64,000 nt of DNA. It comes from a virus. The notes beneath the pieces were generated by a model. It had not been told where the DNA came from. It saw only the letters and a program-made list of their open reading frames with translations, and made no database searches. The stretch covers positions 1-64,000 of IMG/VR virus record IMGVR_UViG_3300007734_000753; one strand, given 5' to 3'. The position numbers were made by a program, and so were the translations under genes. Below, piece after piece: positions 12,526 to 55,831 of this stretch; within the stretch, counting starts at the first letter, position 1; every line of letters starts with the position of its first letter.

Positions 12526-13050
12526 ATGATTTTAGGTTTAGACATTAGTACAAGCATCATTGGTTATACAATTCTTGATAAAGACAATAAAATAATTGAA
12601 TGCGATTGTATTCGTTTGGAAAAGTTCAAGGATTTTTTTGTAAAAGCCAAAAACGTCAAAAACAAACTAGTTTCAATCGCCAAGCAATATGATATAAGTT
12701 CGGTTTATATTGAGGAAAGCTTACAAGCGTTCAAGCCCGGTTTCTCTTCAGCCTCAACGATTCAGTCACTTTCTAAGTTCAATGGTGTTGTTTCGTGGTT
12801 GTGCAGTGAAATTTTCGATCTTACTCCTGAATATATTTCGGCTGGCACTGCAAGAAAATTTTGCGGAATAAAAGTTCCAAAGGGAGAGAAGGCAAAAATC
12901 TTCGTCTTCAACTTTATACTTGACACGATCCCCGAGTTCAACGTAGAATATACTGCTAAAGGCAATCCTGTCCCCGGTTCTTTTGACCGAGCTGACAGTT
13001 ATGTTATTGCCAAGGCAGGAAATGTTTTATGTCAAATGAACAAAAAATAA
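12526..13050 (+). CDS. RuvC-like Holliday junction resolvase / RNase H-fold nuclease
   Basis: The 174-residue protein has the RNase H-fold pattern of RuvC-type resolvases. It begins ILGLDISTSIIGYTIL with the first catalytic Asp at residue 5, has an acidic strand end 'VYIEES' near residue 65, and ends in a helix with 'FDRADSYVIA' that supplies the final Asp residues. Such enzymes cleave branched DNA intermediates; in a T4-like phage this would help resolve replicative DNA before packaging, the job T4 gives to endonuclease VII. A ribosome site AGAGG precedes the ATG. It overlaps the following primase gene by 22 bases, which supports a coupled DNA-processing operon. Confidence 0.75.
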   Translation: MILGLDISTSIIGYTILDKDNKIIECDCIRLEKFKDFFVKAKNVKNKLVSIAKQYDISSVYIEESLQAFKPGFSSASTIQSLSKFNGVVSWLCSEIFDLTPEYISAGTARKFCGIKVPKGEKAKIFVFNFILDTIPEFNVEYTAKGNPVPGSFDRADSYVIAKAGNVLCQMNKK

Positions 13051-13967
13051 AAATAATTTCCTCAATCTTTGGTGAGTATTCCAAGTCAGGAAAAGAGTTT
13101 TTATTCTATTGCCCAGCTTGTAAACATCACAAGAAAAAACTGAGTGTCAATCTTGAGAAAGATAAGTTCAAGTGTTGGATTTGTGACTACTCTGGAAATA
13201 GTATTCGCCGTCTTGTTCGTCGCTATGGCGATGCGACTCAAAAACAAGAGTGGTACAAGATCGATAATCGGATTGAACTAGCCGATTTTGATTTAGATTT
13301 CTTTGACGAGAAGGAAGAAGAATCTCAAGAAACGATTGAGTTACCAAAACAATTTATGTCACTCTGTAACAAGGAAACTCTGGCTTCCACGGTACCGCTT
13401 TCCTATCTAAAAAATCGCAGAATAAATAAGCAAGACATTTTACAATGGAAAATTGGTTATTGTTTTGAGGGCGATTATGAAGGTCGTATTATAATTCCAT
13501 CTTTCGACATGAAAGGTGAGCCAAACTTCTTTGTGGCGAGAGCCTACTCAAAAAGTTATTATCCCAAATACAAGAATCCTCCAGCATCAAAAAACATCAT
13601 CTTCAATGAATTGTATCTTGATTTTGATGAAGATTTGATTATAACAGAGGGAGTATTTGATGCAATTGTGGCAGGAAATAATTCTGTTCCAATCCTTGGC
13701 TCCACAATCAACGAGAAAAGCCGGTTGTTTCAGAAGATTGTCACATACGACACGACAGTTTATTTGGCTCTTGATCCAGATGCGAAAGACAAAGAAAACA
13801 AAATAATTGAGAATCTTCTCAAATATGGTATTGAAATTTATAAAATCAAAGTCGATCCTTTCAAGGATGTTGGCTCAATGACCAAAGAGGACTTCCAATC
13901 CAGAAAGAAGGATGCTATACTGATCGACAACGATAACTATTTTGTTTATCAGACAATGTGTGCATAA
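13029..13967 (+). CDS. DNA primase with zinc ribbon and TOPRIM domain
   Basis: The 312-residue protein has an N-terminal zinc ribbon with two Cys-x2-Cys pairs (FYCPACKHH and KCWICDYSG, about residues 28-52). A TOPRIM domain follows, with the acidic first motif 'LIITEGVFDAIVAG' around residue 205 and 'VYLALDPDAKDKE' around residue 248. This is the architecture of DnaG-type and T7/T4-like primases, which make RNA primers on single-stranded DNA with the replicative helicase; a gp41-like helicase is encoded at 59903. It is shorter than bacterial DnaG, which also has a helicase-binding domain. The start overlaps the nuclease gene; an AGGAAA site lies upstream. Confidence 0.8.
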   Translation: MSNEQKIKIISSIFGEYSKSGKEFLFYCPACKHHKKKLSVNLEKDKFKCWICDYSGNSIRRLVRRYGDATQKQEWYKIDNRIELADFDLDFFDEKEEESQETIELPKQFMSLCNKETLASTVPLSYLKNRRINKQDILQWKIGYCFEGDYEGRIIIPSFDMKGEPNFFVARAYSKSYYPKYKNPPASKNIIFNELYLDFDEDLIITEGVFDAIVAGNNSVPILGSTINEKSRLFQKIVTYDTTVYLALDPDAKDKENKIIENLLKYGIEIYKIKVDPFKDVGSMTKEDFQSRKKDAILIDNDNYFVYQTMCA

Positions 13968-13977
13968 CGGAGAATAG

Positions 13978-16900
13978 ATGAAATTTAGTCATATCAGCGA
14001 TATTCATATTCATAATCTAAAGTATCACAAAGAGCAGAAACAAGTCTTTGAGAAAGTTTATGAACACCTGAAAGCCAATAAAGTTGACATAAACATCCTT
14101 ACTGGCGATCTATTTCATATCAAAGGAAATGTTACGCCAGAAGCATATCAAGCCGCTGCTGACTTTCTAAAAAACTTGGCAGACATTGCACCAACGCATA
14201 TTATTCTTGGCAATCACGATCTAATCTTATCAAACAAGAATCGACTTGACAGCGTATCGCCAGTTGTTGATGCGTTGAATCATCCGCTTTTGTTTTTACA
14301 TAAGAATTCAGCAGAGATTACGATTGGCGATGGCAAGTTTGCTCTAAACGTAATGTCTATTGTTGATGAACAAGAGGACTGGATTCCAGTATCAAATCCA
14401 AACGCTGTGAACATTGGTTTGTATCATGGTTCAGTTGCTGGAGTTCTAACTGATCAAAATTGGGTTATGACTCATGGCGAAATAGACGTTGAGAAGTTTG
14501 CTGATTTTGATTATGTTTTGCTTGGCGATATTCACAAAGCAAATCAAATTTTAGACACAGAAGGTCGTGTTCGTTATGCAGGAAGCCTGTGTCAAAACAA
14601 CTTTGGGGATCTAGACGATAAAGGCTTTTTGATCTGGGATATAAAAGATAAAAACAACTTTACCGTTGAACATATTCATATTCCAAATCCAAAACCATTT
14701 ATAAATCTAGATCTTGAAAGCGATGGAACTGTTCCAGCTAAATTTGCTTGCCCAATTGGTTCGCGTATTCGTGCAATTGGTCACACTGATTTATCATCTG
14801 ATAAAATTAAAAAAACTCTTGAGCTTATTAGAAAAAAATACAAACCAGAAAGTTTGTCGTTTCAGAATAAATCAAAAACAAGTGACACTCGTTTGCTTTT
14901 GTCTGACTCATTGAAAAATACAAATTTACGAGACGAAGACACACAAAAGAAACTAATCAAAGAATATCTAAAAGAACACACCGTTACTGATGATGTGTTT
15001 GATGAAATTTATACTCTCAATGCTAAATATAATAGAGAGGCAGAAGCCAATGAAGAGGTATCGCGCAATGTTCAATGGAAGCTGAAGAAGCTAACATGGG
15101 ATAACCTTTTCAATTATGGGGAGGGAAACGAAATTGACTTCACCAAAATTAAAGGCACTGTGGGTATTTTTGGTAAAAACTTCTCTGGTAAGTCTAGCAT
15201 TATTGATAGCTTACTATTCGCGATTTATAATAACACTTCTAAAAATATACGAAAAAATCTCTTTGTCATCAACCAAAACAAAAAGACTGCAAGTTGCTGT
15301 GTGGAAATCGAGGTTGATAGCAAAGTATACAAGATTGAGCGCAACTTATCCAGATACACCAAAAAGCTCAAAGGAGAGGTCACGGAAGAGGCGAAGGCGA
15401 CGGTAGACTTTTCTTATTTTGATATGCTCTCAAATGAAACTGTTAGCCTAAATGGTGTTGACGGCAACGAAACAAATAAAAATATACGCAAACTATTTGG
15501 CACCATTGAAGACTTTTTTGCTACTTCAATGTCATCACAGACTGGCGCACTTGATTTTATCAACGAAGGTTCGACTCGGCGCAAAGAAATATTTGCCAAG
15601 TTCCTTGATTTAGAAATATTTGAGACAAAATTCAAGCTTGCCAAAGATCAATCTTCTGTTATCAAGGCGGCATTGCGTCGTCTTGAAAATAAGAATTTTG
15701 ATTCTGAAGCCTCTGAAATCAGGCAACTTGTTATTGATAACGAAGAGAAAACAAAGAATAAAGTTGACGAGATAGAAAAAAACAAAGTTATTATCTCTGA
15801 CCTATCAAAAGAGATTCAATCGCTTGAAGATAAAATCTCAAAGATTGATTCTGAAAACATTGATATTGTATCAGTAAAATCAGAGATAAAGAGTCTAGAG
15901 GAGACTAGAGATACTTTATTACAAGACAATTTTGCTAAAAACAAGAAAATCGAAGAGTCAGAAGCCTTCATCCAGAAAGCACAAGCCTTTTTATCTGAGT
16001 TTAATATTGACGATGTAAAGAGCAAAAAACAAAATCTAGCTTCTCTAATAAACCAACTTGACGCTCTAAACGCTTCAACTGCCGAACAAAAGAATCTTTT
16101 ATCAATTTATAAAACCCACACCGATGGGCTAAACAATCTTCCTTGTGGTAAAACTTATCTTGATTCATGTTCTTTTATCAAAGAAGCAAATGAGTATTTG
16201 AGTAAAGTTGATGTTGTCGAGCTGGCTATTCAACAGGGCGAAACAAATGGTCAGCAGCTTGCTGCCCAAATTGCAGAAATAGATGAAAACAAACTCAACA
16301 ACTATATTGAAAAATTCGAGAAGCTTCGGCTAAAGAAAAACGACGAAGAAAAAAATATCATCAATTTCAATCTTGTGATTGAGAAAAACAAAAATATAAT
16401 CACAGGTCTATCAGAAAAATTACGTCTTTTTTCTGAAAAGTTAAAGTTTTACGAAGAGCACAAAGATGCAATAGAAAACAAGAAAAACCTACTTGTTGAA
16501 CTTACAACCAAAAAAGTTGCAGTAGAAAATACTAAAGTTCTTGTAAAAAGTCTTGAGCTTGAGTTAGCATCTTTATATAAAGAACATGGTTCGCTTGAGC
16601 AAAAGATTGAGACAATAAAACAAAATGAAAAAGAAAAAGTATCCCTTGAAAAACAATATGCAGCTTATGAACTATTCATGCGTTGTATGCATAGCAACGG
16701 AATTGCATTTGATTTGATCAAAAAGAATTTACCAGTTATTAATCAAGAGATCGCCAAAGTTCTATCAAACATTGTAGAATTTGAGATATTCTTCGAGAAT
16801 ACGGATAATAAACTTGATATCTTTATCAAACACCCAAAATATGATGCTCGTCCTCTAGAAAACGGTTCCGGCGCAGAAAAAACATTAGCTGCAATGGCTA

Positions 16901-17136
16901 TTCGCATTGCTTTGATCAATATTACAAATATGCCAAAGCCAAATATTTTTATTCTTGACGAACCGGGAACTGCCCTTGATAATGATAATATGGAGGGTTT
17001 TATCCGTATTCTAGATTTGGTCAAGAACTATTTTGATATCACGGTGCTAATTAGTCATATAGATCAATTGAAAGATGCAGTTGATACAAACATTGAAATT
17101 TCGCGAAACGAAGGTTTCGCATTTGTAAAATGCTAA
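13978..17136 (+). CDS. Fused Mre11-Rad50 (SbcD-SbcC; T4 gp47-gp46) nuclease-ATPase
   Basis: One 1052-residue chain carries both halves of the Mre11/Rad50 complex. The N-terminal third is a calcineurin-like phosphoesterase: DIHIH (D8, H10), a GD motif near residue 42, GNHD (78-81) and later conserved His residues. From about residue 365 a Rad50-type ATPase begins, with Walker A GKNFSGKSS at 399-407, a long Lys/Glu coiled coil split by a hinge, the signature 'SGAEK' (964-968) and Walker B 'FILDEP' with D994 and E995. The usual CxxC zinc hook is replaced by two Cys eight residues apart (C723, C731). T4 encodes the two subunits as gp47 and gp46; they process DNA ends in recombination-dependent replication. 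The start has a GGAG site. No stop or second start separates the halves. Confidence 0.85.
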   Translation: MKFSHISDIHIHNLKYHKEQKQVFEKVYEHLKANKVDINILTGDLFHIKGNVTPEAYQAAADFLKNLADIAPTHIILGNHDLILSNKNRLDSVSPVVDALNHPLLFLHKNSAEITIGDGKFALNVMSIVDEQEDWIPVSNPNAVNIGLYHGSVAGVLTDQNWVMTHGEIDVEKFADFDYVLLGDIHKANQILDTEGRVRYAGSLCQNNFGDLDDKGFLIWDIKDKNNFTVEHIHIPNPKPFINLDLESDGTVPAKFACPIGSRIRAIGHTDLSSDKIKKTLELIRKKYKPESLSFQNKSKTSDTRLLLSDSLKNTNLRDEDTQKKLIKEYLKEHTVTDDVFDEIYTLNAKYNREAEANEEVSRNVQWKLKKLTWDNLFNYGEGNEIDFTKIKGTVGIFGKNFSGKSSIIDSLLFAIYNNTSKNIRKNLFVINQNKKTASCCVEIEVDSKVYKIERNLSRYTKKLKGEVTEEAKATVDFSYFDMLSNETVSLNGVDGNETNKNIRKLFGTIEDFFATSMSSQTGALDFINEGSTRRKEIFAKFLDLEIFETKFKLAKDQSSVIKAALRRLENKNFDSEASEIRQLVIDNEEKTKNKVDEIEKNKVIISDLSKEIQSLEDKISKIDSENIDIVSVKSEIKSLEETRDTLLQDNFAKNKKIEESEAFIQKAQAFLSEFNIDDVKSKKQNLASLINQLDALNASTAEQKNLLSIYKTHTDGLNNLPCGKTYLDSCSFIKEANEYLSKVDVVELAIQQGETNGQQLAAQIAEIDENKLNNYIEKFEKLRLKKNDEEKNIINFNLVIEKNKNIITGLSEKLRLFSEKLKFYEEHKDAIENKKNLLVELTTKKVAVENTKVLVKSLELELASLYKEHGSLEQKIETIKQNEKEKVSLEKQYAAYELFMRCMHSNGIAFDLIKKNLPVINQEIAKVLSNIVEFEIFFENTDNKLDIFIKHPKYDARPLENGSGAEKTLAAMAIRIALINITNMPKPNIFILDEPGTALDNDNMEGFIRILDLVKNYFDITVLISHIDQLKDAVDTNIEISRNEGFAFVKC

Positions 17137-17145: not shown

Positions 17146-19020
17146 ATGAAAAAGTATTTATTATTAATGCCGCTTCTAATAATTGGTTGTGGTGACGATC
17201 TTGGCTGGAAAGAAAAGAAAACCGACCATGATTGTGCAGATTCAATGGTAGCCGACGCTGGTTCTTCCGACGTTGCACAACCACAAGATGTAAGTGAGGT
17301 GAACGATGTTCAATCAGACACAAATCAAGTTGTTGAAGATTCTGTTGACGCCACCGAAACTGATATATCCGATAGCAGTGGGAGCGACGACACTAGCGTT
17401 TCCGTCCCTGATAGCGTTACAGGAGAAGATGCAGGAGATTCACAAGACGCAGCGGAAGACGTAACACAAGACGTTGCACCACCACCAGAGTGCGTGACTT
17501 CAACAGATTGCGCCGCCGCCGCACTCCCTTGCATCGCTCCTGATTGTGAAGCGGGTAAATGTGTAACAGTTCCAGCGGATACACCATGCTCAGACAACGA
17601 TGAGTGTACTGTTGGCGATCAATGCCAAGTTGGTCAATGTGTTGGAGGCGCTCAGGCAAACTGTGACGATCTAAATCCATGCACAGATGATTCATGTGAT
17701 CCAGCTAAAGGCTGCGTTCATTTACCAAATCAAGTAACCTGTGTAGATGGAAATGGTTGCACTACTGATGATATTTGCAAAGATGGAGCTTGCGTAGCTG
17801 GTGTTCCATTCAATTGCGACGATGGAAATGTTTGCACAGATGATAGCTGTGAATCTATTGGTAAAAGCGAAATGCATGTTTGCAAGCATTTACCAAATCA
17901 AGCAACTTGCACTGATGACAATGTTTGCTCTTTAGACGATGCCTGTGAAGGTATGTCTTGCAAATCAAAATCAGCTGCTATTTGTGATGATAGTAACATT
18001 TGCACAAACGATTCTTGTGATCCTGTAGCTGGTTGTGTATTTTTACCAAATGAAGTAACTTGCACCGATAATGATGCTTGCACCTCAGATGATAAATGTG
18101 CCGATAAAGTTTGTAAATCTGGTGCTCCGCTAAATTGTGCAGACACAAATGATTGCACAACTGACTTATGTAAGCCAGAAACGGGCTGTTATTTTGATAA
18201 TAATCAAAATGTTTGCAGTGATAATAATGTTTGTAGCGTAGATGATAAGTGTGAAGCTGGTGTTTGTGTCGCTGGTCTTCCAAAAGTTTGCGATGATGCA
18301 AATATATGCACGGTTGATTCTTGCGATCCTGTAAATGGATGCAAAGCTGTAAATGCTGCTGATGGGACAAAGTGTGCTGAAGGTATTTGCCAAAATGGCG
18401 CTTGTGCTTGCGTAAGCGGATTTGGCTGTGCTTCACCTAGCTTCTCATACGCCTCAGAAACAAATGCAGGCATGTTAGGCGGCATGGGTGGGCAAGTTGG
18501 ACCAAAGATGGGTTGCAACGCTACTGATGTAATTATTGGTATCGGTTTTGATTTCAGTAATGGTCAAAAGAATGCAACAAAAACAACTGTCGTTTGTGGT
18601 AAAGTTTCTGTAGCACAAGACAGCACAGTTTCAACTGTTCAGACAACAACACAAAAGAACGGTGGTTCTGGCTGCTTTGGTTGGGATCCATCAACTCCAA
18701 CTCCGCTTGTTGTTTGTCCAAATGGCTGGGCTGTGGTTGGTATTGAAGGAACAAAAGCGGGTTCAACATTGTTCAATAATGTTAAGCTTGTTTGTGGTAA
18801 GTTGGGAATTAATGGTAAATCAACAGGAGAGACACAAACTCTAACTGTTAATGGAACCACTGGTCCCGGCACCCAAGCACAAGTTGTTGCTTGTGCCGCT
18901 GGAACAATCGCTCGTTATTTTGAGACGAGAGCTGGTTGTGGTCAAGATGCTTTGACTTTGTATTGTGCTACACCTTCACCAGATTGCACTGGTCAAGAAT
19001 TAATTTGTAAGGATCTATAA
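17146..19020 (+). CDS. Cys-rich repeat lipoprotein, myxobacterial style
   Basis: The protein starts with a lipoprotein signal: KKYLLL..., hydrophobic core, and lipobox LIIGC with the acylated Cys at residue 15. An Asp/Ser/Val-rich linker of about 90 residues follows. Then come about five and a half copies of a 40-50-residue Cys-rich repeat (CDD.N.CT.DSCD...GC...PN..TC.D.N.C..DD.C..G.C..G). The final 190 residues form a separate Gly/Thr-rich domain with paired Cys. This plan (lipobox, acidic linker, Cys repeats) is common in surface lipoproteins of Myxococcota and related lineages and unusual in a phage. It is preceded by AAGGAG and lies 9 bases after the Mre11-Rad50 gene. Role unknown; surface display or superinfection exclusion are guesses. 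Confidence 0.7.
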   Translation: MKKYLLLMPLLIIGCGDDLGWKEKKTDHDCADSMVADAGSSDVAQPQDVSEVNDVQSDTNQVVEDSVDATETDISDSSGSDDTSVSVPDSVTGEDAGDSQDAAEDVTQDVAPPPECVTSTDCAAAALPCIAPDCEAGKCVTVPADTPCSDNDECTVGDQCQVGQCVGGAQANCDDLNPCTDDSCDPAKGCVHLPNQVTCVDGNGCTTDDICKDGACVAGVPFNCDDGNVCTDDSCESIGKSEMHVCKHLPNQATCTDDNVCSLDDACEGMSCKSKSAAICDDSNICTNDSCDPVAGCVFLPNEVTCTDNDACTSDDKCADKVCKSGAPLNCADTNDCTTDLCKPETGCYFDNNQNVCSDNNVCSVDDKCEAGVCVAGLPKVCDDANICTVDSCDPVNGCKAVNAADGTKCAEGICQNGACACVSGFGCASPSFSYASETNAGMLGGMGGQVGPKMGCNATDVIIGIGFDFSNGQKNATKTTVVCGKVSVAQDSTVSTVQTTTQKNGGSGCFGWDPSTPTPLVVCPNGWAVVGIEGTKAGSTLFNNVKLVCGKLGINGKSTGETQTLTVNGTTGPGTQAQVVACAAGTIARYFETRAGCGQDALTLYCATPSPDCTGQELICKDL

Positions 19021-19022
19021 TC

Positions 19023-20036
19023 ATGAAAAAGCTGCTGATACTTTTATTATTATTTATTCCAAAAGTTGCTGACGCTTGGGAATCAACTATAGGCGTTGGT
19101 GCTTATGCGAGAAGATTTAATGAAAAGGATCAGCTTGGTGCTCTTTCTAAAGATGAAGGTCTAAAACCAGAGAGTTCGGCTGGGTTGGCACTGAACGGTT
19201 CATTTCTGTTCAATGTCAGCCCTTCCCTATTATTTGGTCCAGATTTAACAATAACTTATTCTTGGTTATCTGCGCCACAACAAGACAATTTACAAACTCA
19301 AAGTCTTATCGCTGCTGGTAATTTACAATATAATGATAACGGCTTTAGTTTGGCTCTAAAATCCGGTTTTATTCTAAACTCACTTACTACTGAATATGAT
19401 ATAAAGATTGATTTTGATACAGGTTTTATAACTTCTGTGAAGGTTGGTTCAGAGGTTATGGATTCCGCAAGATTTTATTTTGAGCCACAGCTAATCATAA
19501 CTCCATCAACTGAGGCGAAGAATGTTTTTGTAAATTCATTTGCTTTGGTTATTGGTATTGAAAATGTATTTAGACCAAAGAAAAAGATTGAGGTTGTGAA
19601 AGTTGTAGAGGCTATTGTTGAACCTCCTAAAGAAATAACTCCCGTAAAATTACCAGAAGTTATTACACCAGTTGCCGCTCCACCTATTATTGTTGTAGCT
19701 CCAATCGTCGTTGAGCCACCAAAAGAAATAACGCCAGTAAAATTGCCAGAACCTCCAACGCCAGTTCAGCCTGTCGAAAAACCAAAGCCATTAGTTCTAA
19801 AATTTGATGGAAATGAACTATCACCAGAATCTATTGGCTTTTTAGAGAATATTGTAAAAATTCATAATAGTGTTGCCTCTGTTATCAAAGTCAATCACAG
19901 CAGAGGAAATAATGCTAAAAAGAAAGCAGAAATATTATACACTTGGTTTACTAATCATGGAGCGAAGAAAAAAGAGGTATTGGTAGTTCCCGGTCTAAAA
20001 GGCAAGGAAATAAGAATCGAAGTCGTTCCAAAGTAG
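19023..20036 (+). CDS. Exported outer-membrane-like protein with Pro-rich linker and OmpA-like tail
   Basis: A signal peptide (KKLLILLLLFIPKVADA, probable cleavage after residue 18) leads into about 170 residues of alternating hydrophobic strands ('TIGVGAYARRF', 'SLLFGPDLTITYSWL', 'FSLALKSGFIL') that could form a small beta barrel. Residues 199-250 are a Pro/Val-rich linker with the unit VEPPKEITPVKLPE present twice (from residues 199 and 230). The last 80 residues ('LVLKFDGNELSPESIGFLENI ... IKVNHSRGNNAKKKAEILYTWF') loosely follow the OmpA C-terminal peptidoglycan-binding pattern, but I do not see all its key residues. It is two bases after the Cys-rich lipoprotein and in front of a second lipoprotein. 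Probable envelope location; function unknown. Confidence 0.6.
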   Translation: MKKLLILLLLFIPKVADAWESTIGVGAYARRFNEKDQLGALSKDEGLKPESSAGLALNGSFLFNVSPSLLFGPDLTITYSWLSAPQQDNLQTQSLIAAGNLQYNDNGFSLALKSGFILNSLTTEYDIKIDFDTGFITSVKVGSEVMDSARFYFEPQLIITPSTEAKNVFVNSFALVIGIENVFRPKKKIEVVKVVEAIVEPPKEITPVKLPEVITPVAAPPIIVVAPIVVEPPKEITPVKLPEPPTPVQPVEKPKPLVLKFDGNELSPESIGFLENIVKIHNSVASVIKVNHSRGNNAKKKAEILYTWFTNHGAKKKEVLVVPGLKGKEIRIEVVPK

Positions 20037-20042
20037 GGCAAA

Positions 20043-22127
20043 ATGAAAAAATTATCTTTATTATTATTGTTGGTGGCTTGTTCTAACGCCGATCCAACAA
20101 CTCAATCTTCTTTATCTATTGGCGGTAGTTTTATATTTGATGCCGGAACTCAAACGGAAAAAGACGCCGAAGAAGATACCAAAGAACAAACTTTTGATAC
20201 TGTATCGTCTGAAGATATACAGGATATAGTTGAGGACATACAACAAGATATAACAGAAGATTCACAGACAGATGTAGTAGAACAAATAGACACTATAAAA
20301 GATACCAAACCAATTTGCGTCGATGAAGATGGTGATGGATATGGTGAAAATTGCTCTAAGGGCAGCGACTGCGATGATGCCAATCCAAATTTCACAACGT
20401 ATTGCCCAGACTGTAAAAAAGGCAATTATCCCGGCTGTATTTGCTCTGGTAAATCCGCTCCATGCTATTCAGCAGATCCAACAACAAAAGCCGTTGGTCA
20501 ATGTAAAGCAGGAACGCAAGCTTGCAAATCTGGTATTTGGCAAGTTTGTATTGGTGAGATAACACCTTCACCAGAAGTTTGTGATAACATTGATAATGAC
20601 TGTGATGGTCAAATCGACGAAGGCGTAAAATCTTCTTGCGGAACTTGTGATCTTACTTGCGTAAAACAATCAGTCGGAGTCAATGAACCTATTATTCTCA
20701 ACTCCGAGAACTCTTCTGGTGTCGGTATTGATCCAAATACAGGCTTTATAAAGATTGATTCAAGCCAAATCTCATTGAAGCTCAAGTTCTTGTGGGCTTC
20801 TAATTCAAGTGAAAATACTGTATCAAAAGTTGATTGTAAGACAATAAAAGAATCTGGTCGTTATCAAGTATGTAATAATCCCTCAAGAACATCTGTAGAT
20901 CTTGATGGAAATGTATTTGCTGCCTGTCGTGGTGATGGTAAGGTAGCAAAAATTATTGCGGATAAAAAGAACTGTATTGATAAAAATGGAAATGGTGTTA
21001 TTGAGACAAGCGAAGATCTAAATGGTGATGGCAATATATCTGGTAATGAAATGGCGAATAATGATGAATGTATCCAATTTATCGTTCAGCCATTAGGCAA
21101 TCAATCCTCTTATCCCGGCTCAAGAGGTGCGGCAGTTGATAAGTTCAATAATGTTTATATTGGTTATTGGAATGAAGCCAAAGTTGCCTATGTTGATGGA
21201 AAAACAGGGGCAACGATAAAAATAATTGATTGGCAATGCCCGACTTATGGTCTAGTTGTTGATCAAAAAGGAACTCTATGGGGTCAAGGTAATGGCTGCG
21301 GTTGGCTAATGTCCTACAATCCAACCAGCGGTCAATGGGCAAAAGCTTCCTCATATGGGGCAAATGGAATTAGTGCTTATGGAATCAATGTTGATGGTAA
21401 AGGTCGTATTTGGGTTGGAGGAAGTTTGGCTCGCTATAATCCAGCAGATGGAAGCTGGATGAAATGTAATATAGGTTGTGCTGGTATTGCTACGGCAAAC
21501 GACGGCATGGTTTGGCTAGCAAAAGATGGAAGCGGTATTGGAAAAGTTGATGGTGAAAATTGTGCTCAACTTGGAACTGTGAATAGTGGTGGCGCTCCGC
21601 ATGGTTGTGCTGTTGATTTTGATGGTTATGTTTGGGGTGTGAATCTTGGCGGAAACTCCGTTGATAAAATTGAACCCGGCAAGACAGGGCAACAAATAGG
21701 ACCATTATTAGGCTCTAGAAAAATAGGAAGCGGTCCATACACATATTCAGACATGACTGGATATACACTCAATTATTTTACCGCTCCAAAGGGCTTATTT
21801 ACAACAACCTTCTTCGCTGGTGGAAATGGTAATCCCATTTCGCAGATGAAGCCAAAGGCTGTATGGCAAGAACTAAATGTCGAAGCTATGTTGCCCCCTG
21901 CCACAAAAGTCCATATTCGTGTTCGTGCGGGCGATACAAAAGATCAATTAGATAATGGAAACTGGATAGACATTATGGATTTGACAGATATGGCGCAAAT
22001 GCCAGTTGATTTATCACAGAAAAACATTATTGGAATAATGCTTCAGATAGAGATAAACCTCATCACAGAAGATAAAAAGGTAAGTCCTTCTGTTGGCTCA
22101 ATAACAGCTAAGGCAAAACTACAATAA
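20043..22127 (+). CDS. Lipoprotein with MopE-like metal motifs, EF-hand loops and beta-propeller
   Basis: The signal peptide ends in lipobox LVAC (Cys13, then Ser, which favours outer-membrane sorting in Gram-negatives). After an acidic linker comes a MopE-type motif pair: 'VDEDGDGYG...GSDCDDANP' (from residue 93) and 'EVCDNIDNDCDGQIDEG' near residue 180. Two tandem EF-hand-type calcium loops, DKNGNGVIETSE (313-324) and DLNGDGNISGNE (325-336), precede repeated blades such as 'GLVVDQKGTLWGQGNG' and 'GINVDGKGRIWVGG' that resemble NHL/streptogramin-lyase beta-propellers. The C-terminus is a beta-type domain. The combination is typical of Myxococcota-like surface proteins and probably needs calcium. 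Third gene of the exported cassette; role in infection unknown. Confidence 0.65.
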   Translation: MKKLSLLLLLVACSNADPTTQSSLSIGGSFIFDAGTQTEKDAEEDTKEQTFDTVSSEDIQDIVEDIQQDITEDSQTDVVEQIDTIKDTKPICVDEDGDGYGENCSKGSDCDDANPNFTTYCPDCKKGNYPGCICSGKSAPCYSADPTTKAVGQCKAGTQACKSGIWQVCIGEITPSPEVCDNIDNDCDGQIDEGVKSSCGTCDLTCVKQSVGVNEPIILNSENSSGVGIDPNTGFIKIDSSQISLKLKFLWASNSSENTVSKVDCKTIKESGRYQVCNNPSRTSVDLDGNVFAACRGDGKVAKIIADKKNCIDKNGNGVIETSEDLNGDGNISGNEMANNDECIQFIVQPLGNQSSYPGSRGAAVDKFNNVYIGYWNEAKVAYVDGKTGATIKIIDWQCPTYGLVVDQKGTLWGQGNGCGWLMSYNPTSGQWAKASSYGANGISAYGINVDGKGRIWVGGSLARYNPADGSWMKCNIGCAGIATANDGMVWLAKDGSGIGKVDGENCAQLGTVNSGGAPHGCAVDFDGYVWGVNLGGNSVDKIEPGKTGQQIGPLLGSRKIGSGPYTYSDMTGYTLNYFTAPKGLFTTTFFAGGNGNPISQMKPKAVWQELNVEAMLPPATKVHIRVRAGDTKDQLDNGNWIDIMDLTDMAQMPVDLSQKNIIGIMLQIEINLITEDKKVSPSVGSITAKAKLQ

Positions 22128-22161: not shown

Positions 22162-23100
22162 ATGCTAATAAAAAGAGGTATGACAGGTCCATTAGTTGCT
22201 GCTCTACAGCAAAACTTGGAAGATCTAGGATATGAACTAGGAAATGTTGATGGTGCTTTTGGTAAGAACACCGAAGCTGCTGTAAAAGATTTTCAAGGTA
22301 AAAAAGGACTTGGTGCCGATGGCGTTGTTGGTCCAAAAACATTACAAGCAATTGATGCTGCCCTAAAAGCTGCTGGCAAAGAAGGCGCTGAATTTGATGA
22401 TCAACCAGAAGAAGCCCCAGCAGTTATTCAAGAAGTAAATGTAAAAATGGGTTGGGTCACTTGCCCTGCTGATAAATATCCCGGCAAAGACGGCTATGGC
22501 TCAACAATTTTGAGAACTGATGCTGCGGCAGCATATAAAGAACTAAAAGCCGAAGTAAATGCTCTCGGTGGCGTTGTAACTTCTGCTGGTGGTCGTCGTG
22601 CTCTAAGCTCTGGTGCCGGTCCAGCAAGATCAAAAACCTCAATGCATTATACAGGTTTAGCTTTTGATATGTCATTAGCAACTGGTATGCAAAGCACAGA
22701 AAGAGATCCTTTCTTATGTGTGAGAGTTCCAGATAGCCGCAAATGGACTGTTTGGTGTAAATCAGACAAAGCCTCAGAAGTAGAATTAGATGTTGTAACT
22801 TGCTCAACTGTAAAAGGCAAGACACAACTAAAAACAACCAAAATAAAAGTAAAAGCTTTCAACTTTACCGAAGTTGCTGAAAAACATGGCTTCTACAGCA
22901 TTTCAGCTCGCAAGTCCTTCTTTGAGGGTGGTGCTTATGGTGGAGCCGAGTGGTGGCACTTCCAATACAACAAGGCTCTTACAAAGGGTCAAAGCAAGTT
23001 CGGTGAAGAACTATTAAAAGTTTATTCTCTAAATGAGGCTCAAAAGTTCGTTTATTGGAACGAAGTAAAAGACAATGTTTACGGCGTAAACTGGTTCTAA
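22162..23100 (+). CDS. Endolysin: peptidoglycan-binding domain plus M15-type peptidase
   Basis: Residues 1-70 form a PG_binding_1 domain ('MTGPLVAALQQNLEDLGYE', 'DGAFGKNTEAAVKDFQ', 'GVVGPKTLQAI'). The C-terminal part is a peptidase of the M15 (VanY/D,D-carboxypeptidase-like) type: SMHYTGLAFD gives H162 and D169 of the zinc site, and GGAEWWHFQ gives E263 and H266. M15 enzymes cleave peptide bonds in the cell-wall stem or cross-link, so this is the lysis enzyme. There is no signal peptide, so release would depend on the holin-like protein at 24321. GGAGG precedes the ATG at good distance. A 50-residue insertion between the metal ligands is longer than in compact M15 endolysins. Confidence 0.85.
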   Translation: MLIKRGMTGPLVAALQQNLEDLGYELGNVDGAFGKNTEAAVKDFQGKKGLGADGVVGPKTLQAIDAALKAAGKEGAEFDDQPEEAPAVIQEVNVKMGWVTCPADKYPGKDGYGSTILRTDAAAAYKELKAEVNALGGVVTSAGGRRALSSGAGPARSKTSMHYTGLAFDMSLATGMQSTERDPFLCVRVPDSRKWTVWCKSDKASEVELDVVTCSTVKGKTQLKTTKIKVKAFNFTEVAEKHGFYSISARKSFFEGGAYGGAEWWHFQYNKALTKGQSKFGEELLKVYSLNEAQKFVYWNEVKDNVYGVNWF

Positions 23101-23466: not shown

Positions 23467-23880
23467 ATGACTAACTGGCTAAAAAACAATTGGGCTACTT
23501 TGCTTGTGTTTGTTGTTGTATTATCCGCTGCTTTATGGATCAAAGGTAAATTTGATGAAAGCAATACAGAGGAAGTAAAGCAACAATATATAAAGCAAAT
23601 GGAAGATCAAAGAAAGTCTTTTGATTCTCAAATAAAAGAGATAAATAAGATTAATGAAGAAGCTTTATCAAAACAAAAAGAGTTGGCTTTACAACATCAA
23701 CAAACTTTAGAGAACCTACAACAGCAATTTGATGAAAAAGTATCTGAACTTGAAGAGTTGAAAAAACTAAAAGTAAAAGAACTTACAAAGCAGCTTACTG
23801 ATGATCCAGAAGTTGCTGTTCATGAAATGGCTCATAAGTTTGGTTTTGATGTTGTCGTTGTTCCCGAGGAAGAACCATGA
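23467..23880 (+). CDS. Membrane-anchored coiled-coil protein, i-spanin (Rz)-like
   Basis: Residues 5-25 form one membrane segment (WATLLVFVVVLSAALWI), followed by about 85 residues of charged coiled coil rich in Gln, Glu and Lys. That is the layout of Rz-type inner-membrane spanins, which span the periplasm in Gram-negative hosts at the last step of lysis. It lies between the endolysin and a holin-like gene and overlaps the next gene by four bases (ATGA). No lipoprotein o-spanin is embedded in it. Similarity is structural, not by sequence family, so the call is moderate. Confidence 0.55.
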   Translation: MTNWLKNNWATLLVFVVVLSAALWIKGKFDESNTEEVKQQYIKQMEDQRKSFDSQIKEINKINEEALSKQKELALQHQQTLENLQQQFDEKVSELEELKKLKVKELTKQLTDDPEVAVHEMAHKFGFDVVVVPEEEP

Positions 23881-24308
23881 ATAAAATAATAGCATTTATA
23901 TTATGTTTCTTGTTTCCTCTATCAGCGTTCGCAGATAACGGCAAAGTTGCTTCAATTAGAGAAAGCCAGAAAGCTCCATTTACAGGCTTTCTTTTTGATG
24001 CCGCAGCATTTGCTAAGATAGAAGTTGATAAACAAACCATTATTGAGAAATATGAACTTGAGAAAAAGTTATTAATTGAAAAATGCGAGGCAGAGAAAAA
24101 GTTTCTAAATGAAACTTGTATCAACGAAAAAGATGTTTTAGTCAAAACAAACGACGTTGTTCTCAAAGGAAAAGATGAAGAAATAACAAGGCTAAATAAA
24201 ATTATTGCTGATATGGCTCCACCAAATAGAGGCTTATGGCTTGGGCTTGGTGCGGCAGCAGGAATAGCAATTAGTCTTACAACAGTCTATTTAGTAAAGA
24301 ACTTATAG
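23877..24308 (+). CDS. Exported coiled-coil protein with C-terminal membrane anchor
   Basis: The protein has an N-terminal signal (KIIAFILCFLFPLSAFA, probable cleavage before Asp20), a helical Lys/Glu-rich middle with three Cys ('KLLIEKCEAEKKFLNETC'), and a C-terminal membrane segment (LWLGLGAAAGIAISLTTVYLV). It would be periplasmic and anchored by its C-terminus. It has no lipobox, so it is not a classical o-spanin or u-spanin, but its place between the Rz-like and holin-like genes argues for a part in lysis. The ATGA overlap with the gene before indicates coupled translation. Confidence 0.55.
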   Translation: MNKIIAFILCFLFPLSAFADNGKVASIRESQKAPFTGFLFDAAAFAKIEVDKQTIIEKYELEKKLLIEKCEAEKKFLNETCINEKDVLVKTNDVVLKGKDEEITRLNKIIADMAPPNRGLWLGLGAAAGIAISLTTVYLVKNL

Positions 24309-25298: not shown

Positions 25299-25559
25299 AT
25301 GAAACTAGAGATTCTGATAGAAATGTGTAAAGCAATGGGCGTATCATACGCATATCCACTTCCTCTTTCTTATACAGAAGATGAGCCAAGCGATGATGAA
25401 CAATGTGATACAAAACATGCTACAATTTCTGTAAAAGAAGTGCCATATGATAATGTGCCAGATGGTGCTGCATATCTAATGAACTACCAAATTTTTGAGA
25501 AAAATGAAAAACAAAGACCCAAACTTCGTACCAAAATTAGAAAAAGCCATAGAAAATAA
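25299..25559 (+). CDS. Small acidic hypothetical protein, 86 aa
   Basis: The ATG follows the terminator closely and has no clear ribosome site. The product is acidic in the middle ('YTEDEPSDDEQCD') and basic at the end, where it overlaps the next gene by 56 bases in another frame. It does not look like a simple shadow, since its first 200 bases contain no other plausible gene. No family recognised. Confidence 0.45.
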   Translation: MKLEILIEMCKAMGVSYAYPLPLSYTEDEPSDDEQCDTKHATISVKEVPYDNVPDGAAYLMNYQIFEKNEKQRPKLRTKIRKSHRK

Positions 25560-25866
25560 ATATGGCGAGATTGCTACGAGAAATCCTTCTTACTTCTGGG
25601 ATGAAGAAAAAGAGAAGGCGTATATTGAACAACTCAAAGAAGAGACAGAAAAACCACCAGAATATACAACTATTCAATCAGATGGTTTTTTTATCAAAAA
25701 GAAACTATTTATGAAAGCGAATCAAAGAACATGCTCGCAATGCGAAAAATACTCTTTTGATTCCAAGGACGACTTATACATAAACAAATTTGAGACTTGT
25801 TTCAAGTGTTATGTAATTTACATTGAAGGCAGAGAAGAAAAATGGCTGAAAAAGAAAACTCCGTAA
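25504..25866 (+). CDS. Zinc-ribbon protein upstream of the terminase genes
   Basis: The likely start is the ATG at 25504; a TTG nine bases upstream is in frame. The 120-residue protein has two Cys-x2-Cys pairs ('RTCSQCEKYSF' and 'ETCFKCYVIY', about 22 residues apart), a typical zinc ribbon, followed by 'YIEGREEKWLKKK'. Such proteins are found near packaging genes of environmental T4-like phages, with unknown role. Nucleic-acid binding is plausible but inferred. It overlaps the next gene by 25 bases. Confidence 0.6.
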   Translation: MKNKDPNFVPKLEKAIENKYGEIATRNPSYFWDEEKEKAYIEQLKEETEKPPEYTTIQSDGFFIKKKLFMKANQRTCSQCEKYSFDSKDDLYINKFETCFKCYVIYIEGREEKWLKKKTP

Positions 25867-26405
25867 CCACTTATGATATAGTAAAAGCGCTATCACAAGC
25901 TGCCTCTGTATATGATGGTGCTCATGATAAAGATGGCGAACCAGTAAAAGCTGGTCTTTCCAGAGAAGAAGGAAACCCTCTTCTTGACAAAAGATGCATT
26001 GATGGCTTCAAGGTAAAGTTTGGCGGTCAACACATGATCCTAACCTATCATACTGAATGCCTTCTCTCTGATATACACAAGATGGGCATTGAAAAGTACG
26101 AAAATGAGATCGAAGGTCACATAAAAGACATTATAAATTTTATCAAGAAAGATTATAAGAATCATGCCAAAGGTTCAGTCTCCCTTACTCAAGAAGGCGA
26201 GACAGACATTTTGATCGAGCCAGTATCAAGAATTCGCACCACGGTTAGAGCAGTTGCTAAATTCAAGATCGGCTCTATAAAAGATATGGATGAAATGCCC
26301 GGTAAAAGAGATGATAGAAAAGATGTAAAGTCTCACAACGAATTAGGCGGGCTTGGTGGTAAAAGACCATCAAATGATACAAGAAAGAAAACAGATGAAG
26401 ATTAA
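25842..26405 (+). CDS. Conserved protein next to TerL, possible small packaging subunit
   Basis: This 187-residue protein is encoded just before the large terminase gene and overlaps it by one base (TAATG). It has a charged C-terminus rich in Asp, Lys and Arg, and a central alpha/beta region ('FKVKFGGQHMILTYHTECLLSDI'). The position is where T4-like phages carry the small terminase subunit gp16, but I do not see the expected helix-turn-helix plus coiled-coil layout. A virion or packaging role is therefore only inferred. GAGAAGAAAA precedes the ATG. Confidence 0.5.
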   Translation: MAEKENSVTTYDIVKALSQAASVYDGAHDKDGEPVKAGLSREEGNPLLDKRCIDGFKVKFGGQHMILTYHTECLLSDIHKMGIEKYENEIEGHIKDIINFIKKDYKNHAKGSVSLTQEGETDILIEPVSRIRTTVRAVAKFKIGSIKDMDEMPGKRDDRKDVKSHNELGGLGGKRPSNDTRKKTDED

Positions 26406-53016: not shown

Positions 53017-54189
53017 ATGTACTTCCAAACTATTGAACGTAACAAAAACTGCTTTGGTTTTTATGCGGATGGATCAATCAAAATCGATCTGCTGCCATCG
53101 CATCCATCAAAAACTTGGGATTACACACACCTATGCGATGACAGCACAGAACTTGCCAAGATCTATTGTGGTGGCAAGACACTTCTTGAGGTGTGTCCCG
53201 AGGAACTAAAGGACGAAGCCGTACAAAGTTTTGATAAACTGAAGGCTTTTATGCGTAGTATGGTTCACGCCAAGATAGATTTTGATGTGAATTGTTTTTA
53301 TGATCTGCTTCCAGAAAAGTTCTTGTTAGAACACTTTGAGATACGTAATAAAATCACTAAATATGTGCTTGAAAATTACGAAAAGCCAAAGAACTATGAA
53401 ACTCTACGTGACGCCTCAGAGCTAATTTATAACATCGAACAACACAAGCTAAACATCGACCTAGAATCGGTCAAGAAAAAGCTGCCAAATCCAAAAGCGC
53501 AAAGATTTATAAAAAACAAGTATCCAAATCGTATCAAATATAATGTATTTGGTGCAGTTACGGGTCGTCTGACGCTAGGCAAAGACAGTTTTCCAATTCT
53601 GAATCTCGATAAAGAGCTTCGTGATTGTATCAAACCGAACAATCATCGTTTTGTTGAGCTAGATTATAATTCAGCAGAGCTTCGTGTTTTGCTTGCCATA
53701 TGCAATAAAGAGCAGCCAACCATTGATTTGCATGAGTGGAACTCAATAAACATCTTTGGTGGTAAGTTAGACCGCTCAAAAGCCAAACAGAAGATCTTTT
53801 CATGGCTTTATGACAAGAAAACTAACGATTTGGCTGAAAAAGTTTATGATAAACAGATAATTATAGATAAATTCTATGATGGAAATAAAGTGAAAACTGT
53901 TTATAATCGAGAGATTGAGTGCGACCAAGAACATGCTGTAAATTATGTCATTCAGAGCACAGCAACTGATTTGGTCGTGGAACAAGCACACAAGATTCAG
54001 AAGATTTTGCAAGGCAAGAAGTCTTTTATCGCATTTTATCTATATGATTCTGTTGTATTGGACTTCCACAAGGAAGATATGCATCTGCTGAAACAAATTG
54101 CAAATACATTTTCTAATACTCGGTTTGGAAACTTTTTGACCAATGTTTCTGTTGGCAAGAACTTTGGCGAAATGGAGAAGAACAAATGA
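53017..54189 (+). CDS. Minimal family A (PolI-like) DNA polymerase
   Basis: The 390-residue protein has the polymerase motifs in order. 'FGAVTGRLTLGKDSFPILNL' (near residue 176) is followed by motif A 'LDYNSAELR' with D216. A Lys-rich helix 'DRSKAKQKIFSWLYDKK' is a probable motif B. Motif C is 'YLYDSVVLDF' with D344. The normal motif C His-Asp-Glu is Tyr-Asp-Ser here, so one carboxylate is missing. No 3'-5' exonuclease motifs occur in the first 170 residues, unlike full-size PolI (928). It could be a gap-filling polymerase or a divergent replicase. It overlaps the next gene by four bases. Confidence 0.7.
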   Translation: MYFQTIERNKNCFGFYADGSIKIDLLPSHPSKTWDYTHLCDDSTELAKIYCGGKTLLEVCPEELKDEAVQSFDKLKAFMRSMVHAKIDFDVNCFYDLLPEKFLLEHFEIRNKITKYVLENYEKPKNYETLRDASELIYNIEQHKLNIDLESVKKKLPNPKAQRFIKNKYPNRIKYNVFGAVTGRLTLGKDSFPILNLDKELRDCIKPNNHRFVELDYNSAELRVLLAICNKEQPTIDLHEWNSINIFGGKLDRSKAKQKIFSWLYDKKTNDLAEKVYDKQIIIDKFYDGNKVKTVYNREIECDQEHAVNYVIQSTATDLVVEQAHKIQKILQGKKSFIAFYLYDSVVLDFHKEDMHLLKQIANTFSNTRFGNFLTNVSVGKNFGEMEKNK

Positions 54190-55022
54190 TTTTTATGGGG
54201 CTTGGCGGTGGTGGTTGCTCGTTGGCAAAAAGATTTTATGAAGTTGCCGAGGAAGGCAATCAACTATTTCTTTTCGACACAAATGAAAAATATAAGCTTC
54301 CCAAAACCAAGTCAATGGAGGAAGCGGAACAAAAAACGCCAGACTTCAAGCTCAACATAAAAGATGAAGACATATTGTTTATTCTTTGTGGGGGTGGAAA
54401 TACATCTGGTCATGCTTTGAGAATTCTTGAGCAGATAAAAGATAATAACATTGACATTATTTATGTGCGCCCAGATCTTTCTTTGGCAAATTCAGAAGAG
54501 AAGCTTCGTGAAAAAGTTGTTTTCAATATATTTCAGGAAATGACTCGTTCTGGATTGTTCAACAAGATGATTCTGGTTTCCAATGAGCATATTGCAAAGT
54601 CAAACGAAGATATAGCTCTTGACAATTATTACGATAAAATCAATGAAACGGTTGAATATGTTTATGGTCACATCAACTTCTTTCTTTCTAAGAAAGCAAT
54701 TAGAAGCAACTTGACAAGCCCGAAAGAAGCATGTAGGCTTGTCACTATCGGCATGGTAGATTACGAATCTGGTGAAGAGCAGATGTTATTCCCGATGGAA
54801 AATATAAGAGAAAAACAGTTTCTTTTCGGCTTGTCGCCTGAATCTGTAAAAAATCGTAAATCGTTACAAAAAATTCAAGACCACTTGACAAAAATTGAAA
54901 AGCAGGGTATCATCTGTTCCCATAAGATTCTTTCACTAGAAATAAGTGACAATCTCGTTTTTACTATTAATTACACTAATTTTATACAAAACCAACTTAT
55001 ACTAAACAACGGAGAAAACTAA
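54186..55022 (+). CDS. Tubulin/FtsZ-like GTPase, divergent
   Basis: The 278-residue protein has tubulin-superfamily landmarks in order. The N-terminal Gly loop is 'MGLGGGGCSLAKRFYE' (residues 4-19). The signature loop 'CGGGNTSGHALRI' (69-75) matches GGGTGSG. 'IDIIYVRPDLSLANSEEKLRE' parallels the FtsZ 'VTRPF' strand and helix, and 'MILVSNEHI' parallels 'IVIPNDKL'. 'RSNLTSPKEACRLVTIGMVDY' sits where the T6/T7 Asn and synergy-loop region is expected. Phage tubulins (PhuZ, TubZ-like) centre or move phage DNA. It is coupled by ATGA to the polymerase gene and followed by the gp32-like gene. It is shorter than FtsZ (about 380) and the C-terminal half is diverged. Confidence 0.65.
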   Translation: MIFMGLGGGGCSLAKRFYEVAEEGNQLFLFDTNEKYKLPKTKSMEEAEQKTPDFKLNIKDEDILFILCGGGNTSGHALRILEQIKDNNIDIIYVRPDLSLANSEEKLREKVVFNIFQEMTRSGLFNKMILVSNEHIAKSNEDIALDNYYDKINETVEYVYGHINFFLSKKAIRSNLTSPKEACRLVTIGMVDYESGEEQMLFPMENIREKQFLFGLSPESVKNRKSLQKIQDHLTKIEKQGIICSHKILSLEISDNLVFTINYTNFIQNQLILNNGEN

Positions 55023-55023
55023 A

Positions 55024-55761
55024 ATGGCTATTGATCTAAAAGCAATGCGTGCAAAACTATCACAACTAAACTCAAAAGGTGCAAATTCGGCTGGTCCGAA
55101 GTTCTGGAAGATTCCCGATGGCGAGAGCGTGATTCGCGTCCTGCCTGCTAAGGATGGAGATCCTTTTAAGGAATTCCATTTCCACTATAATGTCGGTAAA
55201 GAGAACGGCTTTCTCTGTCCCAAGAAGAACTTTGGTGAGAAATGCGCCGTTTGTGATTTCGTATCGAAACTCTACAAAGAGGGTGACGATGAAAGCCGGG
55301 CAATGGCGAAAAACTTCTCAAGCCGTCAACGCTTTGTAACACCAATCATTGTGCGTGGCGAGGAAAAGGAAGGAACTAAGCTTTGGTCTTACAGCAAAAA
55401 GGTTTATGAGAGTCTGTTACAGCTTGTTCTGAACCCAGACTATGGCGATATTGCTGACGAAAAAGAGGGTATTGATCTTGTCATAGCTTATGGTAAAGCA
55501 CCCGGCATGTTATTCCCTGCTACCAGCGTCACGCCTCGTCGTAAAAGCTCACCACTAACAACCGATCGAGAACTTCTCGATGAGCTTCTTGAGGCTAACG
55601 TAGATTTTGCTACATTGTTTGAGCGTAAAACCTCAGAGCAAGTTGAACAAATTCTTGACCGTCACCTACTTGGTGATGATAAAGAAGAGGTTGTGAAAGG
55701 TGGAAAGGCTGATGACAGCGAAGATGATATCGACCGTAAATTCAGCGAGATGCTTTCATAA
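55024..55761 (+). CDS. Single-stranded DNA-binding protein (T4 gp32-like)
   Basis: The 245-residue protein has a basic start ('DLKAMRAKLSQLNSKG'), a core with a zinc site (His in 'FHFHYNVG', then C-x8-C-x2-C in 'FLCPKKNFGEKCAVC') similar to the T4 gp32 H-C-C-C ligands, and a highly acidic C-terminal tail ('DDSEDDIDRKFSEML') of the type that recruits replication proteins. T4 gp32 is 301 residues. It is followed by a strong terminator. It works with UvsX, primase and helicase on exposed single strands. Confidence 0.88.
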   Translation: MAIDLKAMRAKLSQLNSKGANSAGPKFWKIPDGESVIRVLPAKDGDPFKEFHFHYNVGKENGFLCPKKNFGEKCAVCDFVSKLYKEGDDESRAMAKNFSSRQRFVTPIIVRGEEKEGTKLWSYSKKVYESLLQLVLNPDYGDIADEKEGIDLVIAYGKAPGMLFPATSVTPRRKSSPLTTDRELLDELLEANVDFATLFERKTSEQVEQILDRHLLGDDKEEVVKGGKADDSEDDIDRKFSEMLS

Positions 55762-55786
55762 AGCCTTCTAAAAATTAAGATAATTG

Positions 55787-55827
55787 GAAAGCCCATCCGA
55801 GGAAACTTTGGTGGGCTTTCTGTTTTT
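55787..55827 (+). terminator. Intrinsic terminator after the SSB gene
   Basis: The arms at 55787-55797 (GAAAGCCCATC) and 55810-55820 (GGTGGGCTTTC plus one G-U pair) are followed by TGTTTTTT. The loop region (GAGGAAACTTT) is nearly the same as in the capsid-gene terminator. Confidence 0.85.
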
Positions 55828-55831
55828 TGCG

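What the first reader, a model, noticed from the sequence alone, without database searches (positions are those of the whole stretch)
17146..22127. Three-gene exported surface-protein cassette of Myxococcota style in a phage
Two lipoproteins and one outer-membrane-like protein with signal peptides lie head to tail between the Mre11-Rad50 and endolysin genes, with 2- and 6-base gaps between them. Their designs (Asp/Ser linkers, Cys repeats, MopE motifs, EF-hand loops, propeller) are those of bacterial envelope proteins, not virion proteins. They could remodel the host surface, block superinfection, affect predation or adhesion of a host such as a myxobacterium relative, or act as receptor decoys. 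All functions are inference.
Basis: partly seen in the sequence, partly recalled or inferred. Interest (0 to 1): 0.75.

Follow-up and report, generated by a model that had tools for sequence, protein, structure and literature searches.

The report
Phage-borne host-like outer-membrane protein trio
This uncultured T4-like phage carries three adjacent genes for exported outer-membrane proteins (a lectin on a cysteine-rich stalk, an OmpA-like protein and a beta-propeller lipoprotein) that look like surface proteins of myxobacteria, recur in other phages next to their cell-lysis genes, and probably rebuild the surface of the infected cell rather than the virus particle.

Summary
ORFs 17146-19020, 19023-20036 and 20043-22127 lie head to tail (2- and 6-bp gaps) between Mre11-Rad50 and an endolysin. 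P0001 is a lipoprotein with an acidic linker, 49-Cys stalk and a beta-prism (jacalin/VMO-I-type) lectin domain. P0002 has a signal peptide and an OmpA/Pal-fold C-terminus. P0003 is a lipoprotein with MopE-like motifs and an NHL-type propeller. None matches a PHROG. P0003 has full-length homologues in 6 of 9 genomes of one Myxococcota class; phage copies form one clade.

The trio is not unique. It is intact in a second phage, moved between capsid and head-tail genes. P0001+P0002 occur in an otherwise unrelated phage between endolysin and a holin-like gene. In all three lineages a peptidoglycan hydrolase is adjacent or nearly so. Codon use is late-gene type; selection is purifying. The lectin domain is the most conserved part.

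Best reading: a host-derived, late, lysis-linked outer-membrane module that remodels the infected cell's surface, probably masking receptors against superinfection and re-adsorption to debris. Rivals: an outer-membrane lysis factor; a TraAB-like adhesion pair. Localisation is inferred, function untested. Separately, MopE-VWA lipoproteins occur at 441 IMG/VR places.

The parts
17146..19020 (+). P0001: 624-aa lipoprotein; lipobox Cys15 followed by CGDDLGW (identical in all three phage lineages), acidic linker 16-114, Cys-rich repeats 115-424, beta-prism lectin domain 425-624
   Evidence: fold
18418..19017 (+). C-terminal beta-prism I (jacalin/VMO-I type) domain of P0001, with GXXXD motif GCGQD identical in the three lineages
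   Evidence: AlphaFold pLDDT 72, pTM 0.75; VIA-align Z 12.4 ipomoelin, 11.8 VMO-I; 74% and 67% identity to the other two lineages; motif
19023..20036 (+). P0002: 337 aa, signal peptide 1-18, probable outer-membrane barrel 19-185 (unproven), Pro-rich linker, OmpA/Pal-like C-terminal fold ~259-337
   Evidence: conserved next to P0001 with a 2-bp gap in L106 and L232
20043..22127 (+). P0003: 694-aa lipoprotein; Cys13, acidic linker 14-91, MopE/EF-hand-like Cys motifs 92-206, NHL/Vgb-type beta-propeller ~245-560, C-terminal domain ~561-694
   Evidence: cellular homologues; phage homologues
22131..22144 (+). Copy of the intergenic motif AACTAYTTATAGTA between P0003 and the endolysin; the same motif follows P0003 in G001 (63629)
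22162..23100 (+). Endolysin (PG_binding_1 plus a C-terminal domain with HxxxxxxD...WWH motif, M15-like by inspection)
23467..23880 (+). Rz-like i-spanin candidate (N-terminal TM + coiled coil); weak match to phrog_89, E 0.004
23877..24308 (+). Exported coiled-coil protein overlapping the spanin candidate by 4 bp; a homologue pair stands close upstream of P0003 in L229-L231
24321..24773 (+). Holin-like small membrane protein (by topology only); homologue directly follows P0002 in L232 (50%)
13978..17136 (+). Upstream flank: fused Mre11-Rad50-like protein (replication-class codon use)

Best explanation
A host-derived, late-expressed outer-membrane module carried with the phage's lysis genes. Shown: three proteins with export signals (two lipoproteins), built from cellular envelope domains, kept under purifying selection, with late-class codon use, recurring beside peptidoglycan hydrolases. 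Inferred: late in infection the host's Sec/Lol machinery places them in the outer membrane; P0001 presents a beta-prism lectin on a Cys-rich stalk, P0003 presents a propeller on a Cys/metal-motif stalk, and P0002 sits in the outer membrane with an OmpA-like foot. Most likely action: they coat the surface of the dying cell and occupy the surface glycans or receptors that phages use, so that new virions neither re-enter infected cells nor stick to debris. This would work like T5 Llp or Cor but through large, host-mimicking, probably surface-exposed proteins. About 0.75 for 'envelope module, not virion'; about 0.4 for this action.
For: Export signals and lipoboxes conserved across three lineages. 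Lectin-fold tip with the jacalin-type GXXXD motif. Cellular counterparts: P0003 full length in one Myxococcota class; lectin domain in Myxococcota. Phage P0003s form one clade, support 100/99, so one old acquisition fits. Codon use of the late class: LLR +14.9, +10.5, +22.9, against -3 to -42 for replication genes. Lectin domain 67-74% identical between phages, one of which has an endolysin only 48% identical: a conserved host ligand fits better than a phage-specific receptor. A trio-bearing relative also carries GDP-mannose dehydratase, epimerase, aminotransferase and cytidylyltransferase genes, compatible with a surface-glycan theme.
Against: No localisation, host, receptor or expression data. 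The T5 Llp paper describes superinfection-exclusion proteins as expressed early (PMC9586334), while the trio looks late. Repeated nearness to peptidoglycan hydrolases is explained at least as well by a role in lysis. P0003 is not always with P0001+P0002, so the three need not act together.
Confidence: 0.4

Rival explanations
1. Outer-membrane stage of lysis/egress: the proteins weaken the outer membrane or its link to the cell wall, as partners of or substitutes for spanins. P0002's OmpA-like foot could compete with host OmpA/Pal, and P0001/P0003 could cluster outer-membrane glycans or proteins.
For: A peptidoglycan hydrolase is adjacent, or one small ORF away, in all three P0001+P0002 lineages, and the hydrolases are of two unrelated types (PG_binding_1/M15-like, and an SLT lipoprotein). 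A holin-like gene directly follows P0002 in L232; P0003 stands close to a spanin-like pair in L229-L231. The otherwise unrelated phage G202 shares little else with the window phage. Late codon use. No spanin-like pair was recognised around the trio or pair in G001 and L232.
Against: None of the three has the size or design of known spanins. The window copy of the OmpA-like domain lacks the usual Asp/Arg ligands (inspection). P0003 in L225/L226 and the MopE-VWA lipoproteins are not next to recognised endolysin genes. A conserved lectin tip is hard to explain this way.
Confidence: 0.28
2. TraAB-like adhesion pair: P0001 (lectin on a Cys-rich stalk) and P0002 (outer-membrane part plus OmpA-like domain) bridge infected and uninfected cells or promote outer-membrane contact, helping spread.
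For: Same two-gene plan as traAB: lectin-like domain, Cys-rich repeat stalk, partner with C-terminal OmpA-like domain, tight operon. The traAB paper itself notes that PF00526 repeats, the family P0001 matches, resemble TraA's (PMC3325183). Relatives are in Myxococcota.
Against: No PA14, TIGR04201 or MYXO-CTERM match; opposite topology (N-terminal lipid anchor); the lectin is conserved, whereas TraA's recognition domain is variable (PMC5562445 abstract).
Confidence: 0.1
3. Structural/virion or adsorption role: the proteins decorate the particle or act in tail adsorption.
For: In G001 the trio lies between the major capsid and head-tail genes.
Against: Signal peptides and lipoboxes would export them away from cytoplasmic assembly; no PHROG match; P0001+P0002 are present in a phage with unrelated structural genes.
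Confidence: 0.05
4. Fitness cargo for the living host (metal or polysaccharide capture, attachment) without a direct infection role.
For: Mimics abundant host-type surface proteins: dozens of partial matches per genome in the related class.
Against: Late codon class and lysis linkage do not suit help to a living host; lysogeny genes were not sought.
Confidence: 0.08

Closest known systems
Phage superinfection-exclusion lipoproteins (T5 Llp, T1-type Cor)
   Same: Phage-encoded outer-membrane lipoproteins; same proposed purpose
   Different: Those are small; Llp is periplasmic and jams a TonB-dependent receptor (PMC9586334). Here 624- and 694-aa multidomain proteins with lectin/propeller tips and late codon class
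Myxobacterial TraA/TraB outer-membrane exchange pair
   Same: Two-gene operon; lectin-like domain with Cys-rich stalk; partner with C-terminal OmpA-like domain (PMC3325183)
   Different: No PA14, TIGR04201 or MYXO-CTERM; lipid anchor at the N-terminus; lectin is beta-prism I; found in phages
Myxococcota MopE/propeller surface lipoprotein family (e.g. JAFDKH010000077, L111)
   Same: P0003 aligns from residue ~92 to the end: Cys/MopE motifs, propeller, C-terminal domain; 35-38% overall identity
   Different: Phage copies form a separate clade, add an acidic linker of about 60-80 aa, and sit with P0001/P0002 in some phages; no trio seen around the cellular genes examined
Beta-prism I lectins (jacalin family, VMO-I, ZG16)
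   Same: Fold (Z up to 12.4) and a GXXXD motif
   Different: 7-20% identity; Cys-rich; larger; on a lipid-anchored stalk; sugar binding untested

Membership tests
Llp/Cor-type superinfection-exclusion lipoproteins | N-terminal lipobox | tested here: met
   P0001 and P0003 sequences and homologues
Llp/Cor-type superinfection-exclusion lipoproteins | Small single-domain protein | tested here: not met
   624 and 694 aa, multidomain
Llp/Cor-type superinfection-exclusion lipoproteins | Early expression | tested here: inconclusive
   Codon use is of the late class; no expression data
Llp/Cor-type superinfection-exclusion lipoproteins | Binds and blocks the phage receptor | not testable with these tools
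   Host and receptor unknown
TraA/TraB outer-membrane exchange | PA14 domain in TraA | tested here: not met
   Pfam scan shows only PF00526; the tip models as beta-prism I
TraA/TraB outer-membrane exchange | TIGR04201 repeats and MYXO-CTERM tag | tested here: not met
   No NCBIfam match for P0001 or its homologue; no C-terminal TM
TraA/TraB outer-membrane exchange | Partner with C-terminal OmpA-like domain in a tight operon | tested here: met
   Fold; 2-bp gap in three lineages
NHL/Vgb-type beta-propeller | Propeller repeat profile | tested here: met
   Profile of A1 vs PDB, 1rwi E 1e-18; Vgb_lyase in 9 of 9 members
MopE (PF11617) | Profile above curated cut-off | tested here: inconclusive
   P0003 22.9 bits against 27; 5 of 9 family members match at E<0.001
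Beta-prism I lectin (jacalin-like) | Three-fold beta-prism fold | tested here: met
   AlphaFold model; Foldseek E 6e-5; VIA-align Z 12.4 over 132 residues, rmsd 3.2
Beta-prism I lectin (jacalin-like) | GXXXD sugar-binding motif | tested here: inconclusive
   GCGQD is present in all three lineages but its place in the binding loop was not checked residue by residue
OmpA-C/Pal peptidoglycan-binding domain | Beta-alpha-beta-alpha-beta-beta fold | tested here: met
   pLDDT about 70-84 at 270-337; best Foldseek hits are OprF/Pal/OmpA, E 4e-3
OmpA-C/Pal peptidoglycan-binding domain | Conserved Asp and Arg that hold diaminopimelate | tested here: not met
   By inspection the window copy has NHSRG and KKKAE where the remembered consensus has GHTD and SxxRA; no PF00691 match
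Two-component spanin (Rz/Rz1) | i-spanin with N-terminal TM plus small o-spanin lipoprotein | tested here: not met
   None of the trio has an N-terminal anchor beyond an export signal, and none is small; a separate Rz-like gene lies at 23467

The most novel reading that the evidence does not exclude
A mobile lysis-linked phage module that builds a host-mimicking lectin/OmpA-like surface apparatus late in infection (a phage counterpart of the TraAB design), used to join infected cells to neighbours or to pass outer membrane or receptors to resistant cells.
Probability: 0.1. Interest if true: 0.88.

Novelty: new variant of a known kind. Interest (0 to 1): 0.62.

Why it matters
The well-known phage outer-membrane lipoproteins (Llp, Cor) are tiny. 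Here, phages with no match for these proteins in the annotated phage collection carry large lectin- and propeller-tipped envelope proteins of host type. One pair is shared between otherwise unrelated phages together with lysis genes, and a parallel MopE-VWA lipoprotein family has relatives at 441 places in IMG/VR. If the reading holds, remodelling the infected cell's surface with host-mimicking adhesins is a common phage strategy against a large uncultured group of bacteria, and superinfection/debris shielding can be tested directly against an outer-membrane role in lysis.

Tried and rejected
Recent insertion from the host: rejected; codon use is phage-late-like and homologous trios exist at ~50-71% identity. 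Assembly chimera: rejected. Bacterial operon captured whole: not supported; P0003 homologues in the Myxococcota class stand without P0001/P0002, and the P0002 profile found nothing in nine genomes (no positive control). Defence genes: no PADLOC match. Known phage families: no PHROG match and no tblastn match in INPHARED for P0001 or P0003. P0002 barrel by AlphaFold: failed, pLDDT about 25. Viral structure library for the P0001 tip: nothing below E 0.001. Sigma-70 promoter scan: not informative (59 found, 42 expected). A CRISPR-based host link was considered and not tried. The T4 late-promoter octamer TATAAATA is enriched but lies on both strands, so it was not used.
Full report
Observation. 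P0001 and P0003 have lipoboxes and long acidic linkers; P0002 has a cleavable signal peptide. The record is a 76.7-kb IMG/VR virus record with a T4-like portal, terminase, capsid and sheath. An independent contig carries the same arrangement.

What the proteins are. P0001 matches the Dictyostelium Cys repeat PF00526 (E 1.9e-20). Its last 200 residues model in AlphaFold (pLDDT 72, pTM 0.75) as a beta-prism I domain: the best VIA-align matches are plant and animal lectins of the jacalin type (Z 12.4, rmsd 3.2 over 132 residues) and VMO-I (Z 11.8), and a jacalin-type GXXXD motif is kept (GCGQD). P0002's last ~78 residues model as OmpA-C/Pal, but the usual Asp/Arg ligands are missing by inspection; its N-terminal half is probably a barrel (weak hit) but was not resolved. 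P0003 has Cys/MopE-like motifs and an NHL-type propeller.

Origin. P0003 has full-length homologues in a class of Myxococcota MAGs: of 9 held genomes of that class, 7 match at E<1e-20 and 6 of them over nearly the whole protein. Several of these cellular genes look like lipoproteins too, without the long acidic linker, and are not next to P0001- or P0002-like genes. The phage copies form one clade with 100/99 support. The P0001 lectin domain has a 37% match in a genome of the same phylum, there following an Asp/Pro/Ala-rich linker. So the parts are of host type; whether the trio was ever a host operon is not shown.

Distribution. Trio: the window phage, its sibling, and the IMGVR_3300042477_000445 group, in which Rad50 is followed by the terminase region and the trio stands instead between the major capsid and a head-tail gene. 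There a 171-aa lipobox protein with an SLT transglycosylase domain follows directly. P0001+P0002 without P0003: IMGVR_3300032224_001305, locus GC 0.50, whose other genes show almost no similarity to the window phage; the order there is endolysin (48%), a small ORF, P0001 (48%), P0002 (25%, 2-bp gap), holin-like gene (50%). P0003 without the other two: L225 and L226 at the capsid site, L229-L231 at the Rad50-terminase site close to a spanin-like pair. P0001 and P0002 were not found in those records (some records are fragments). The module is therefore divisible, mobile and repeatedly linked to envelope-breaking genes.

Selection and timing. Against the second lineage, dN/dS is 0.20-0.27 for the trio, like the capsid's 0.21 (synonymous sites near saturation). 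The window genome has two codon classes; the trio falls with structural and lysis genes (LLR +14.9, +10.5, +22.9), not with replication genes. One of 14 structural genes, the capsid gene itself, falls on the other side, so the split is not perfect. Against the sibling, 127 substitutions lie between 17646 and 21437 while 3.7 kb before and 3.3 kb after are identical: a recombination tract has replaced most of the trio, mostly by synonymous changes. Within P0001 the lectin tip is the most conserved part: 66% to the unrelated phage against 46% for the stalk and 35% for the linker.

How it most likely works. Shown: export signals, host-type domains, purifying selection, late-type codon use, lysis linkage. 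Inferred: outer-membrane display late in infection. The conserved lectin tip across phages with different particles points to a conserved host glycan rather than to a phage-specific receptor, which fits a surface coat that blocks superinfection and re-adsorption to debris. A lysis role explains the gene neighbourhood at least as well and is the main rival. The TraAB resemblance (PMC3325183) is one of design only: its defining domains were tested and not met.

A wider class. Many other phages (among L003-L024) carry a single lipoprotein with MopE repeats and a VWA domain with a MIDAS motif. A last scan found relatives at 441 stretches of IMG/VR; of 77 examined genes, 73 have the DxSGSM motif and 54 passed a simple lipobox test, which misses some clear cases. 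No window-endolysin homologue was seen within 6 kb of them, so the class as a whole need not be a lysis factor.

Limits. No host, no expression data, no localisation. Signal peptides were read by eye and with simple patterns. The holin-like and spanin-like labels rest on topology and weak matches.

Noticed in passing
L245-L323 (IMG/VR), L003-L024: Widespread phage lipoproteins with MopE repeats plus a VWA (MIDAS) domain: 441 related stretches in IMG/VR; 73 of 77 examined have DxSGSM.
   Followed up: partly
window 11288, 22131, 30049, 41011, 58271, 63211, 63818; G001 58708, 63629: Strand-biased motif AACTATTTATAGTA (9 hits within 2 mismatches, 1.6 expected; 26 of 29 weight-matrix hits on the + strand), often just upstream of genes: candidate phage promoter or processing site.
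   Followed up: partly
window 12526-17136, 53017-63164: Replication/recombination genes use a distinct codon set (GC3 0.29-0.40) from structural and lysis genes (mostly 0.17-0.32).
   Followed up: yes
window 17646-21437: Recombination tract against the sibling contig IMGVR_3300007735_000920: 127 substitutions inside, none in 3.7 kb before or 3.3 kb after; other divergent blocks at 25299-26405, 55024-55761 and 56916-58109.
   Followed up: yes
L195:238-8649 (G001): The second trio-bearing phage carries sugar-nucleotide genes: GDP-mannose 4,6-dehydratase (E 1e-125), epimerase, class-III aminotransferase, cytidylyltransferase, mannose-P isomerase domain.
   Followed up: partly
L113 (DYRY01000035.1): A MAG titled Anaeromyxobacter dehalogenans has 31% GC on this stretch, far from that species; probable misnaming or contamination, yet it encodes a P0003-like protein.
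   Followed up: no
window record 75159-75665 and L240:3299-3754: A 168-aa protein of unknown function is shared (52%) with the otherwise unrelated phage G202.
   Followed up: no
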